A stretch of 64,000 nucleotides of DNA from a virus. The stretch covers positions 1-64,000 of the IMG/VR virus record IMGVR_UViG_3300017963_000203. One strand, 5' to 3'. This document shows positions 24,398 to 29,127 of this stretch, piece by piece. A program made the position numbers and the translations under genes. The notes beneath the pieces are model-generated. The model made no database searches. It was not told the DNA's origin and saw nothing but the letters and a program-made list of their open reading frames with translations. Positions within the stretch are counted from its first letter, which is position 1; the number at the start of each line of letters is the position of its first letter.

Positions 24398-24759
24398 GGG
24401 GGCGTAAAGGGTTCGACTGGGTAGTGAAAGGATACCTTGCGTGCCGTGGTTGGTCGGTCACCACGTTAAAAGCCGCCCACACTTTTAAGTGCCAATCCAA
24501 ACACTGGGAGCTTCACCGCTCCCCTCGCAGCGGTCGCTTAGACCCCTGCCCTCAAACCGGCGAGGTTCCGTAGCTGGGGCGAGGCCGTTCACGGGACTGG
24601 ATCGGCAGAGCTGGTCGTCTGCTGGTTGAGAAAAGACCTGGCTTCGTCGGGTGGAAAGAACCCGAATAGGTTGCCGGCTCTCGAAAGAACCGGATACGCG
24701 CGTAGACAGGTACTGGAAACTGCTTCAGGACGTGGGTTCGATTCCCACCGCCTCCACCA
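24398..24759 (+). ncRNA. ssrA: Transfer-messenger RNA (tmRNA)
   Basis: A complete 362-base tmRNA. The acceptor arm is GGGGGCG / CGCCTCC with the G3.U pair that marks alanine charging, followed by discriminator A and an encoded CCA. The 5' part GGGGGCGTAAAGGGTTCGACTGGG and T-arm GTGGGTTCGATTCCCAC are canonical. The tag reading frame starts at 24491 (GCC after TTAAGT) and ends at TAG 24539-24541, giving ANPNTGSFTAPLAAVA, a hydrophobic end typical of ClpXP-type degrons. It rescues stalled ribosomes and tags the nascent chains. It sits between two intrinsic terminators. Confidence 0.95.
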
Positions 24760-25831: not shown

Positions 25832-26091
25832 TGTTCAAGTGCAACCTATGTCATAAGGAATTCGAGACGGAGAGATCCCTGAACAGCCATCGAGCTTGGC
25901 ACTCAGGAAAATTGAAGGCTTGGAAAGATGCTTCACTTCTTGAGTACCCAGTGAGCAAAACAAAATGGCGAAGAAAAGGGACCAGGCTCATCCGGGAATT
26001 TCTACGTAAACTGCTGAATCCTGATATGCCTGTCGAAGATCGTGAAGACCTCATCAAGATGATCCACATGGAGATCGAAAAGCATCTCTGA
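25831..26091 (+). CDS. Single C2H2 zinc-finger protein
   Basis: 86 residues; its ATG shares a base with the upstream TGA (TGATG), so it is coupled to the multi-finger gene. The N-terminus FKCNLCHKEFETERSLNSHRAWH is a textbook C2H2 finger. The rest is a basic helix and an acidic end. Probably DNA or RNA binding. It belongs to the same AT-richer cassette as its neighbour. Confidence 0.85.
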   Translation: MFKCNLCHKEFETERSLNSHRAWHSGKLKAWKDASLLEYPVSKTKWRRKGTRLIREFLRKLLNPDMPVEDREDLIKMIHMEIEKHL

Positions 26092-26100
26092 ATAGTAACT

Positions 26101-26242
26101 CACCACCACGGTCGGGCTTGGCTGAGGAGGTTCAGCCTGACATACTTGTGTGGTGTCCTTCATCGGCACCACTCCTTTCCCTGGCGGGGGTCTTCGGGCC
26201 CCCGCGAATCAGTCAAGAGCGAGGCTTCGGCCTCGCTTTTTT
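26101..26242 (+). ncRNA. Small structured RNA candidate or structured 3' UTR with terminator
   Basis: No ORF is apparent between the zinc-finger gene and the next start. CACCAC (26101-06) pairs with GTGGTG (26150-55), enclosing GTC/GAC and GGCTGA/TCAGCC (26120-25/26132-37) with GGAGGT in the loop. A GC hairpin GCGGGGGTC-TTCG-GGCCCCCGC-like stem (26184-26205) and a true terminator (26218-26242) follow. It may be the processed 3' end of the zinc-finger mRNA or a separate RNA. No family recognised. Confidence 0.4.
26218..26242 (+). terminator. Intrinsic terminator
   Basis: AGCGAGGC-TTCG-GCCTCGCT stem followed by TTTTT; separates the zinc-finger cassette from the ligase operon. Confidence 0.92.
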
Positions 26243-26295
26243 ATTGAGGGTGTCGTGCCTGCTGTCAAAGTCGCCATCGAGAAGAAGGAAGAAGA

Positions 26296-26463
26296 GTGAA
26301 GGAGATCGCCACAGAGTTCTTTTGGGGATTCGTGCTGCTCGTCCCCACGCTCGTCATCACCATGCTCGTCCTGGGCTCCATAGGGTATGTCCTGGAGAGC
26401 ATCGCCAAACTGTGGAAGAGGAGGTCAAGTGAACACCAAGACCCTGGAGAAAAAGATTCGTAA
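26296..26463 (+). CDS. Tiny single-span membrane protein
   Basis: 55 residues from GTG 26296 (GAAGGAAGAAGA upstream). The sequence has one hydrophobic segment of about 23 residues (residues 9-31, FWGFVLLVPTLVITMLVLGS), then a basic stretch KLWKRR and a polar tail. The 3' end overlaps the ligase start by 35 bases in another frame and carries the ligase ribosome site. Topology fits a holin-like or membrane-anchor protein, but there is no lysis cassette around it. Codon pattern is good; existence is inferred from sequence only. Confidence 0.6.
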   Translation: MKEIATEFFWGFVLLVPTLVITMLVLGSIGYVLESIAKLWKRRSSEHQDPGEKDS

Positions 26464-28258
26464 GGCCCGCGTAGCCTACTACAACGGAGAGCCCATCATG
26501 TCGGACAAGGAGTTCGACGAGCTCATGGATCATCTCCGGAACGCAGCCCCGACCAGCCGCGTCCTGAAGGAGGTGGGCGCAAAGCCGATGGGCACCACCG
26601 GAAAGCACTCCATCCCCATGGGAAGCCTGAAGGAAGCCAAGACCCCGGAGGAGATGGAGTCGTGGATGAAGGGGATCAAGCGTGGATTCCTGGTCATGGC
26701 CAAGGTCGACGGGCTCAGCCTGTCCTTGGACTATCGCGCCGGCATGCTCGTACAGGCGCTCACCCGCGGCAACGGCCGAGAAGGGGAGGAGGTGACCGCT
26801 AACGTGCTGGAAATGCAGAACGTCCTCGAAGAGATCCCGGGCTTCGACGGCACTCTGCGCGGCGAAGCGTACCTTCCCGTGGCCACCTTCAAGGAGAAGT
26901 ACGAGGGCGACTACGCCAACCCCAGGAACACCTGCGCCGGCATCGTGCGCCGGCACAGCGGTGAAGGATCTTCAGACGTGCACCTGGCTTACTTCTTCCT
27001 CGAGGAAACGGATCGGTTCTTCGCCACCAAGAGCGAGATGCTGGCACGCATCAAGGAGCTGGGACTCAAGACCGTCGACTCGTTCAAGACGAAGGGAATC
27101 ACGAGCCTCTGGCACGCATGGAACGGTGTGGTGAAGACTCGCTACGAACGAGCCTACGAGATGGACGGCATCGTAGTGTACGTCGACCGTGTAGGCGAGA
27201 GGGATCCAGGAGATCCCTTCCTGCCCGACGACGCCTTCGTCTACAAGTTCAATCCGGACGTGGCCGAGACCCAAGTCACCGAGATCGAGCACGTCGCCGG
27301 CCGGTCCGGGAGGGTCAACCCGAGAGTCCACGTCGAGCCGGTGAAGGTGGGGGGCGTCACAGTCACCCACGCGACGGGGAACAACTATCCCTGGCTGAAG
27401 AACCTGGGCGTGGGCGTTGGGGCCCTGGTCGAGATCTCGCGCCGCGGCGACACCATTCCAGCAGTGGAGAAGGTCCTCAAGGCCGGCGCACCCCTGGTTA
27501 TCCCCGGGTCGTGTCCAGCCTGCAAGAGCGTCCTCGAGAGGGACGGGGCCTACCTCAAGTGCAAGAACCTGGCCTGCGAAGCCAAGGACTCCGGAAGCGT
27601 TGCCCACTGGCTGCGCCTCATCGAGCTGAAGGGCGTCGGAAAGAGGACCTTGGAGAAGCTCGTGGAGATGGGTGTCCGACGTCCCTACCAGCTCTACAAC
27701 CAGCGGTTCGAGTTCTGGCAGGAGTTCGGAGCCAACGGGAGGAAGGTCTTCCAGCAGCTCATGCTGAAGAAGACCGTGAAGCCCGAGTACATCTTGGCCG
27801 CCCACGTCCCCAACGTGGGGCGCCGGCGCTTCCGAGCGCTCATCGACGCCGGCTTCTCCATCGACCACATCCTGCTGAACCGCTCGCCGTTGGCCTACAC
27901 CAACGTGGACGGCATCGGTGAGGAGATGGTCAAGACCATCGACGAAGGAATGAAACAGGAGGCCGCCAACATCCAACGCCTCCTCAACCATGTGAATCCG
28001 GAGGTACCCATGCCGAAGGGAGGAAACCTGGACGGATGGGCCGTCAAGTTCACAGGAAAGATGACGCGGAAGCGGAACGACCTCGAAGACCTCGCCATGG
28101 AGAAGGGAGCGCGCATCGGTTGGCAAAAGGGCAAGAAGAACGTCCTGATCATCGCCGACCCCAACTCCACGAGCACCAAGGCTCAGGCCGCGCGCAAGGC
28201 CGGGCACGAGATCATGTCCGAGGAGCAGTTCCTGGCGGCCGCGGGGGAGGCGGTATGA
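26429..28258 (+). CDS. ligA: NAD-dependent DNA ligase
   Basis: 609 residues from GTG 26429 (AGAGGAGG seven bases upstream). The adenylation site KVDGLSLSL has the nucleophile K92, followed by a TRGNGREGE motif. An OB fold, a four-Cys zinc finger (CPAC...CKNLAC), helix-hairpin-helix repeats and a C-terminal BRCT-like domain (AVKFTGKM...) appear in LigA order. It is slightly shorter than cellular LigA (about 670). The Ia domain that binds NAD is short but present (YYNGEPIMSDKEFDELMDHL). It seals nicks during replication. Confidence 0.95.
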   Translation: MNTKTLEKKIRKARVAYYNGEPIMSDKEFDELMDHLRNAAPTSRVLKEVGAKPMGTTGKHSIPMGSLKEAKTPEEMESWMKGIKRGFLVMAKVDGLSLSLDYRAGMLVQALTRGNGREGEEVTANVLEMQNVLEEIPGFDGTLRGEAYLPVATFKEKYEGDYANPRNTCAGIVRRHSGEGSSDVHLAYFFLEETDRFFATKSEMLARIKELGLKTVDSFKTKGITSLWHAWNGVVKTRYERAYEMDGIVVYVDRVGERDPGDPFLPDDAFVYKFNPDVAETQVTEIEHVAGRSGRVNPRVHVEPVKVGGVTVTHATGNNYPWLKNLGVGVGALVEISRRGDTIPAVEKVLKAGAPLVIPGSCPACKSVLERDGAYLKCKNLACEAKDSGSVAHWLRLIELKGVGKRTLEKLVEMGVRRPYQLYNQRFEFWQEFGANGRKVFQQLMLKKTVKPEYILAAHVPNVGRRRFRALIDAGFSIDHILLNRSPLAYTNVDGIGEEMVKTIDEGMKQEAANIQRLLNHVNPEVPMPKGGNLDGWAVKFTGKMTRKRNDLEDLAMEKGARIGWQKGKKNVLIIADPNSTSTKAQAARKAGHEIMSEEQFLAAAGEAV

Positions 28259-28515
28259 CCGACCCGAACGCCGTCTTCGCACTTCTCGGAAATCTCGATG
28301 ATCGCCGCCGGAGTACGATGAACATGCTGAACCGAATCGTCGACGGAGAGCCGAGCGATCGTTCAGTTCTCGCCGAAGTGCTTCTGAATCACACTGCGAT
28401 CATGCGCGGTCAGCAGATCATCATCAGCCTTTTAACCGACCAAGGCTTGGCCACACGGAGTATGGCCAGGGACGCCCTGCCCGACTACCAAAAAGGGCAT
28501 GCTGATCAGTCATAA
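28255..28515 (+). CDS. Small helical hypothetical protein
   Basis: 86 residues, ATGA overlap with the ligase stop. All-helical, polar (LDDRRRSTMNMLNRIV...). No family recognised. Confidence 0.65.
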   Translation: MTDPNAVFALLGNLDDRRRSTMNMLNRIVDGEPSDRSVLAEVLLNHTAIMRGQQIIISLLTDQGLATRSMARDALPDYQKGHADQS

Positions 28516-28520
28516 GAAAC

Positions 28521-28812
28521 TCGGTAGGAACCTTTCATTCATTCACAACTCTGTCGTGGCCCATAAGGGCTTAAAGGAAGCACCGTAGGGAGCACCAGGT
28601 TGACCGTCGATCAAGCAGCCGCTTGAGAGATGGGGTACGGGCCAAGGAGACGGGATACCTGATCGGCACGCGCAGCCGTGACGGGGAACCGACCTGCTTG
28701 GTCAAGGAGGGGTCAGCCGCCGAAACGTAAGACGTGTAGGCGGGATCGAGGTGTGCACGCCACGATCGGTTCCGGAAGAGACTCGATACCCGCGCGGATC
28801 GAGTTTCTTTTT
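28521..28812 (+). ncRNA. Putative structured RNA with own terminator, family unknown
   Basis: The 400-base gap after the ligase operon has no believable ORF but many nested helices. A long-range closing stem GGAACC/GGTTCC (28527-32/28768-73) encloses TGGCCC/GGGCCA (28557-62/28639-44) and hairpins TCAAGC/GCTTGA (28611-26), CCGCC...GGCGG (28717-43, with inner ACGT/ACGT), and GATCG-A-GGTG-TGCA-CGCC-A-CGATC (28744-67). It ends in an intrinsic terminator at 28781-28812. It resembles neither tmRNA, RNase P RNA, 6S RNA nor a group I intron core by eye. Confidence 0.6.
28781..28812 (+). terminator. Intrinsic terminator
   Basis: ACTCGAT...ATCGAGT stem with a CCCGCGCGG-containing loop, followed by TTCTTTTT. 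It ends the putative RNA just upstream. Confidence 0.85.
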
Positions 28813-28842
28813 ACTCAGCGAAAATCAAGTTCGTATTTTATA

Positions 28843-28866
28843 TTTTCGTGGAAATTTTCACGAAAA
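28843..28866. promoter_or_regulatory. Inverted repeat in an AT-rich leader, possible operator/promoter
   Basis: TTTTCGTG and CACGAAAA arms flank GAAATTTT, a 24-bp palindrome with one symmetrical mismatch pair. It lies in the most AT-rich stretch of the region (about 28815-28900), just upstream of the gene cluster that ends with the sigma factor. A -10-like TATTTTATATT run overlaps its left side. The tandem ribbon-helix-helix protein encoded 200 bases downstream is a plausible binder. Promoter activity is inferred. Confidence 0.4.
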
Positions 28867-28914
28867 GTCGATATGCTCAAAAACGACCCTTGATTTTTCA
28901 CTCGGAGTGGTCAC

Positions 28915-29127
28915 GTGGAAAAGTACGGCGCAATTCAATGTCCGAAGTGCAAGAGCATGAATGTGATCGAGGAGGGTGCTGAGAAGATCGCGGTCGAGCA
29001 CAACGATCTGATCAAGACGGCCTCCGAGAACATGGGGGGCTCGTTCCTTTGCCAGGACTGCAAGCACAGATTCAGCAAGGTGACCGGGTCCGCCGCCTGC
29101 TTGCCGGACGAAAAGTCGGGCACCTGA
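28915..29127 (+). CDS. Zinc-ribbon protein
   Basis: 70 residues from GTG 28915 (GGAGTGGTCAC upstream). Two CxxC knuckles (CPKCKS at 9-14, CQDCKH at 46-51) make a small zinc ribbon. It may bind nucleic acid or RNA polymerase; context next to a sigma factor makes a transcription role plausible but unproven. Confidence 0.75.
   Translation: MEKYGAIQCPKCKSMNVIEEGAEKIAVEHNDLIKTASENMGGSFLCQDCKHRFSKVTGSAACLPDEKSGT

What the first reader, a model, noticed from the sequence alone, without database searches (positions are those of the whole stretch)
28521..28812. Second large structured RNA after the ligase operon
About 290 bases with a long-range GGAACC/GGTTCC closing stem, at least four internal hairpins and a clean intrinsic terminator, but no ORF. 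It sits in the same RNA-rich accessory zone as the tmRNA and matches no family I know.
Basis: seen in the sequence. Interest (0 to 1): 0.72.

Follow-up and report, generated by a model that had tools for sequence, protein, structure and literature searches.

The report
Orphan structured RNA of a phage
Between two operons of an uncultured 131-kb tailed phage lies a roughly 290-base noncoding stretch that folds into a five-hairpin RNA ending in a strong transcription terminator; it matches no known RNA family and has no detectable relative, so it is probably a real phage RNA, but one of unknown role and without evolutionary proof of its fold.

Summary
Window 28521-28812 (+) can form the GGAACC/GGUUCC closing stem, five internal hairpins and a 14-bp terminator with a U tail. 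It has no ORF with coding signal. It folds better than dinucleotide shuffles (z -3.7 to -3.9), the lowest of 59 intergenic tiles of its genome. That is only moderately unusual: 3.6% of random windows reach z <= -3.5, and its composition-adjusted energy ranks 119th of 1792. Rfam gives nothing even at permissive thresholds. No sequence or covariance-model relative was found in three sister phage genomes, IMG/VR pattern hits, GenBank phages or plasmids. The only other copy is 100% identical, so compensatory changes cannot be tested. Two sister phages lack the segment; a third has an unrelated 270-nt noncoding segment at the same site. Most likely it is an accessory phage noncoding RNA, made at the 3' end of the ligase operon or as its own transcript, not the leader of the following sigma-factor operon. 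Function is unproven; a structured 3' UTR is the main rival.

The parts
28258..28515 (+). Last ORF of the ligase operon (about 86 aa; its start overlaps the ligase stop codon); its TAA stop lies at the 5' edge of the RNA
   Evidence: ORF list; weak coding signal, 0.018 per codon; no Pfam or PHROG hit
28514..28525 (+). 5' strand of an alternative 12-bp closing helix that would pair with the terminator's 3' arm
   Evidence: forced-pair fold -118.8 against -122.0 kcal/mol; inverted repeat I1; chance 1-2%
28527..28532 (+). closing stem, 5' strand GGAACC
   Evidence: pair probability 0.93
28546..28602 (+). hairpin 1 (interrupted, least certain)
   Evidence: pair probability 0.72-0.91
28604..28633 (+). 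hairpin 2
   Evidence: pair probability 0.99-1.0
28640..28703 (+). hairpin 3 (longest, three internal loops)
   Evidence: outer stem 0.98, inner stems 0.89-0.98
28704..28710 (+). AAGGAGG in the largely single-stranded junction between hairpins 3 and 4 (Shine-Dalgarno-like, no credible ORF behind it)
   Evidence: sequence; structure
28717..28743 (+). hairpin 4, with a GAA/GUA internal loop
   Evidence: pair probability 0.95-0.99
28744..28767 (+). hairpin 5
   Evidence: pair probability 0.99
28768..28773 (+). closing stem, 3' strand GGUUCC
28774..28812 (+). intrinsic terminator: 14-bp hairpin plus U tail
   Evidence: hairpin -18.7 kcal/mol
28804..28900 (.). AT-rich control region with palindrome TTTTCGTGGAAATTTTCACGAAAA (28843-28866) and outer repeat AAAATCAAG/CTTGATTTT; probable promoter/operator of the next operon (not part of the RNA beyond 28812)
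   Evidence: AT-richest 80 nt of the genome; sister phages have promoter-like sequence directly before the same gene
28915..29127 (+). zinc-ribbon ORF, first gene of the downstream operon that leads to the sigma factor
   Evidence: homologues in all three sister genomes

Best explanation
The segment specifies an accessory noncoding RNA of the phage, about 290-300 nt, transcribed on the + strand and ended by its own intrinsic terminator. It is made either as the 3' part of the ligase / 86-aa operon transcript and then set free by processing, or from a phage-type promoter not recognised here. Its compact five-hairpin body probably acts in trans by binding a protein, the ribosome or itself, rather than by base-pairing with the phage's own mRNAs. 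Shown: the folding potential, terminator, lack of coding signal, absence from Rfam, lack of relatives, absence at this locus in two sister phages. Inferred: that it is transcribed, stable and functional. The trans-acting step is a guess.
For: z -3.7 to -3.9, best of 59 intergenic tiles; five hairpins and a closing stem with high pair probability, and a 14-bp terminator facing the right way; + strand folds better than - strand; negative codon log-odds of all ORFs crossing it; a following AT-rich palindromic region, and promoter-like sequence directly before the downstream gene in sister phages, separate it from the sigma-factor operon; other noncoding RNAs (tmRNA, a 159-nt terminator-ended segment) lie in the same accessory stretch; no complementarity to phage gene leaders above chance. 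Abundant unassigned noncoding transcripts are documented in phages such as ICP1 (PMC7567579).
Against: No expression data. No covariation test is possible. No recognised promoter. 3.6% of random windows of the genome fold as well relative to shuffles and the composition-adjusted rank is 119 of 1792. Not conserved in the sister phages.
Confidence: 0.5

Rival explanations
1. It is just the structured 3' untranslated end of the ligase / 86-aa operon: the folds and the terminator stop transcription before the next operon and protect the mRNA end, with no separate RNA product.
For: It begins at the stop codon of the last ORF of that operon, has no sigma-70-type promoter, ends in a strong terminator and is followed by the control region of the next operon.
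Against: A terminator needs about 40 nt; 250 nt of further multi-helix structure is more than a trailer needs, and the fold without the terminator is still below shuffles (z -2.9).
Confidence: 0.23
2. It is a leader-type attenuator (riboswitch-like) that controls read-through into the zinc-ribbon / sigma-factor operon: the multi-branched body senses something and the 12-bp alternative helix competes with the terminator.
For: Body followed by terminator and then a gene about 100 nt on; the terminator's 3' arm can also pair with 28514-28525 at nearly the same total energy.
Against: The competing strand pairs with the 3' arm of the terminator, which emerges last, the opposite of the usual antiterminator; a probable promoter/operator lies between terminator and gene; two sister phages have the operon without any such element; the alternative helix is only a 1-2% chance event.
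Confidence: 0.09
3. It is, or derives from, a small inverted-repeat-flanked element (MITE-like, or like the inter-inverted-repeat transcript of PLE satellites) that inserted between the operons.
For: Imperfect terminal repeat 28508-28523/28800-28815, 88%; the locus is a site of variable content in the four genomes.
Against: Single copy in the genome, no target-site duplication seen, no copies elsewhere, and the right repeat is simply the terminator arm.
Confidence: 0.06
4. It is unconstrained spacer or a decayed gene that folds by chance.
For: 3.6% of random windows have z <= -3.5; no conservation; sister G001 has an unrelated 270-nt noncoding stretch at the same spot.
Against: Lowest z of all intergenic tiles; strong correctly placed terminator; no remnant of protein similarity to sister phages in six frames below E 0.1; phage genomes rarely keep 290 bp of spacer (general knowledge).
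Confidence: 0.12

Closest known systems
GOLLD and ROOL RNAs of phages and prophages
   Same: Structured noncoding RNAs of unknown function carried by phages, often near tRNA islands (PMC12286853); here the genome carries a tmRNA 3.8 kb upstream.
   Different: GOLLD members often exceed 800 nt and ROOL numbering passes position 464 (PMC12286853); this is about 290 nt and neither family's Rfam model matches.
Unassigned noncoding transcripts of phage ICP1 and the inter-inverted-repeat (IIR) transcript of PLE satellites (PMC7567579)
   Same: Intergenic noncoding segments between phage gene clusters; ICP1 has an approximately 300-bp one; the IIR lies between inverted repeats, as here.
   Different: Those were seen by RNA-seq, and the IIR has antisense homology to gene leaders; here there is no expression data and no leader complementarity above chance.
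tmRNA (RF00023)
   Same: A large phage-borne structured RNA in the same accessory zone; a true tmRNA is at 24398-24759.
   Different: The 28.5-kb segment has no tRNA-like ends, no tag reading frame and no Rfam or ARAGORN hit.
Terminator-type riboswitch / attenuator leaders
   Same: Multi-branched body, then a terminator, then a gene.
   Different: Probable promoter between terminator and gene; no Rfam aptamer match; competing helix uses the wrong arm.

Membership tests
GOLLD / ROOL / other large Rfam RNA families (RNase P, 6S, SRP, introns, phage pRNA) | match to the family covariance model | tested here: not met
   cmscan at gathering score and at E<=10 over 28240-28920: only four chance-level hits to unrelated short families
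tmRNA | tRNA-like domain plus tag ORF | tested here: not met
   ARAGORN and Rfam find it only at 24398-24759
Intrinsically terminated noncoding RNA gene | G+C-rich hairpin followed by a U run at the 3' end | tested here: met
   14-bp hairpin 28774-28811, -18.7 kcal/mol, U tail
Intrinsically terminated noncoding RNA gene | own promoter or discrete transcript | tested here: inconclusive
   no sigma-70-type promoter found; the phage has its own sigma factor, whose promoters are unknown; expression not testable here
Conserved structured RNA family | compensatory base changes between diverged members | tested here: inconclusive
   the only other copy is identical; no diverged member found with model R1
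Attenuator / riboswitch leader | located in the 5' UTR of the gene it controls, with no promoter between | tested here: inconclusive
   AT-rich palindromic control region 28804-28900 lies between; promoter not proven
MITE-like inverted-repeat element | terminal inverted repeats, several copies, target-site duplication | tested here: not met
   repeat present but weak; single copy; no duplication seen in the sequence

The most novel reading that the evidence does not exclude
A new family of compact (about 290-nt) phage noncoding RNAs, produced from accessory sites next to tmRNA and sigma-factor genes, with two nearly isoenergetic states in which either the terminator hairpin or a 12-bp end-to-end helix forms, acting in trans on the host translation or transcription machinery.
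Probability: 0.15. Interest if true: 0.6.

Novelty: new member of a known kind. Interest (0 to 1): 0.3.

Why it matters
Large phage noncoding RNAs such as GOLLD and ROOL are widespread, yet their function is unknown. A compact orphan RNA in a tmRNA-bearing phage would be a small test case for what such RNAs do. The work also shows the limits of the evidence: folding scores alone cannot separate such segments from ordinary phage sequence, since the genuine tmRNA of the same genome scores only z -1.0.

Tried and rejected
Known family: Rfam at gathering and permissive thresholds, no match. Close DNA relatives: GenBank phages, plasmids, own genome: none but itself. Relatives through neighbouring or marker genes (sigma factor, ligase, TerL, major capsid-like protein, tube-like protein) in IMG/VR: gave three sister genomes G001, G011, G020 and short contigs, none with the RNA; genome contigs with the tube alignment: none. 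Motif scans with pieces of the RNA in IMG/VR and GTDB contigs: 13 and 8 stretches, none similar beyond the motif except the identical contig. Homology to the G001 noncoding stretch or to the G011 segment after its tmRNA: no sequence match, covariance-model scores at noise (-0.3 and 4.9 bits); an apparent shared GGTAGGA at the 5' end was dropped as too short. I suspected that the G001 stretch shares the 5'-end / terminator complementarity: not so (237 of 500 shuffles as good). Antisense pairing to phage leaders or genome: not above chance. Replication origin: no cumulative GC-skew extreme of the genome at the site. Decayed gene: no protein similarity to sister genomes below E 0.1.

Full report
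What is there. The window is part of a 130,894-bp virus record that encodes a DnaB-like helicase, DNA polymerase, UvsX-like recombinase, RuvC-like resolvase, terminase large subunit and a sigma-70-type factor, so it is a tailed phage. The + strand run reads RuvC (ends 23377), a small ORF, tmRNA (24398-24759), C2H2 zinc-finger ORFs, NAD-dependent DNA ligase (26387-28258), an overlapping ~86-aa ORF (to 28515), the segment in question, then a zinc-ribbon ORF (28915), two further ORFs and the sigma factor.

The fold. Segment 28521-28812 has MFE -121.6 kcal/mol, z -3.71; reverse strand z -2.43; without the terminator z -2.9. Pair probabilities support the closing stem and five hairpins, the first being the least certain, and a 14-bp terminator with U tail. 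The + strand is therefore the likely transcript. Against the genome's own background the score is good but not extreme: 110 random windows have mean z -0.67 (sd 1.23), 3.6% at or below -3.5; among 59 intergenic tiles the segment is the lowest; after adjusting for composition its energy ranks 119 of 1792. The verified tmRNA scores only z -1.0, which shows how weak this yardstick is in both directions.

Two alternative ends. The 5' edge (28514-28525, AAGAAACUCGGU) can pair over 12 bp with the 3' arm of the terminator (28798-28809). The structure with this helix forced is 3.2 kcal/mol above the MFE. Such a match arises in about 1-2% of shuffles when G-U is allowed, so I treat it as a lead. It places the 5' boundary of the folded unit at about 28508-28514, just at the stop codon of the preceding ORF.

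Not coding. ORFs that cross the region have codon log-odds of -0.25 to -0.40 per codon against +0.21 for small called genes, and the two + strand ones have no PHROG match; six-frame peptides find nothing below E 0.1 in the sister genomes.

Surroundings. Immediately downstream is the most AT-rich 80 nt of the genome (71%), holding the palindrome TTTTCGTGGAAATTTTCACGAAAA inside a second inverted repeat. In the sister phages G011 and G020 the same zinc-ribbon / sigma operon starts with only a short promoter-like spacer and no RNA; in G001 a 270-nt noncoding stretch with a strong hairpin occupies the same position but has no sequence or covariance-model similarity. The downstream operon thus does not need the RNA as leader, and the site is variable in content.

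Relatives. Marker-gene searches of IMG/VR gave three sister genomes of 121-136 kb (G001, G011, G020) plus short contigs. The only other copy of the RNA, in contig IMGVR_UViG_3300028840_007688, is 100% identical over 13.9 kb. A structure model of the 169-nt core finds only itself in 709 kb of held DNA, the next best match being noise. Rfam has no match.

Function. The best-supported reading is an accessory phage noncoding RNA ended by its own terminator (0.5). A structured 3' UTR of the ligase operon is the chief rival (0.23); chance-folding spacer (0.12), a leader attenuator (0.09) and an inverted-repeat element (0.06) follow. No base-pairing target in the phage's own leaders exceeds chance, so if it acts in trans it more likely binds protein or ribosome; the single-stranded AAGGAGG at 28704-28710 would permit contact with the 3' end of 16S rRNA, but that is speculation. 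Unassigned noncoding transcripts of this kind are documented in other phages (ICP1, PMC7567579; GOLLD and ROOL, PMC12286853).

Verdict. Real feature, described correctly; orphan; ordinary as a kind; interesting mainly if relatives or expression are found.

Noticed in passing
window 26088-26246 (+): 159-nt noncoding segment between the zinc-finger ORFs and the ligase region, with a GC-rich UUCG hairpin and a textbook UUCG terminator; z -4.0, better than the segment studied here.
   Followed up: partly
window 24398-24759 (+): Complete tmRNA gene with tag ANPNTGSFTAPLAAVA, flanked by terminators; sister G011 also has a tmRNA, next to a tRNA, while none was found in G001.
   Followed up: partly
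window 28804-28900: AT-richest stretch of the genome with a near-perfect 24-nt palindrome inside a second inverted repeat; a likely operator/promoter of the sigma-factor operon.
   Followed up: partly
L042:10250-10640 (minus strand), sister genome G011: About 350 nt of strongly folding noncoding sequence (z -3.3) directly after the tRNA-tmRNA pair; no Rfam match and unrelated to the window RNA.
   Followed up: partly
G000:C1:77481-77760 (L049:13481-13760), outside the window: Noncoding segment with z -4.35 (+) and -3.7 (-), beginning with a strong terminator-like hairpin.
   Followed up: no
G000:C1:99873-100355 (L050, minus strand): Cluster of six tRNA genes in the same phage, far from the tmRNA.
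   Followed up: no
G000:C1:79834-83320 versus G001:C1:7455-10271: Accessory genes 42-79% identical between G000 and G001 and not detected in the otherwise closer G011: probable recent exchange.
   Followed up: no
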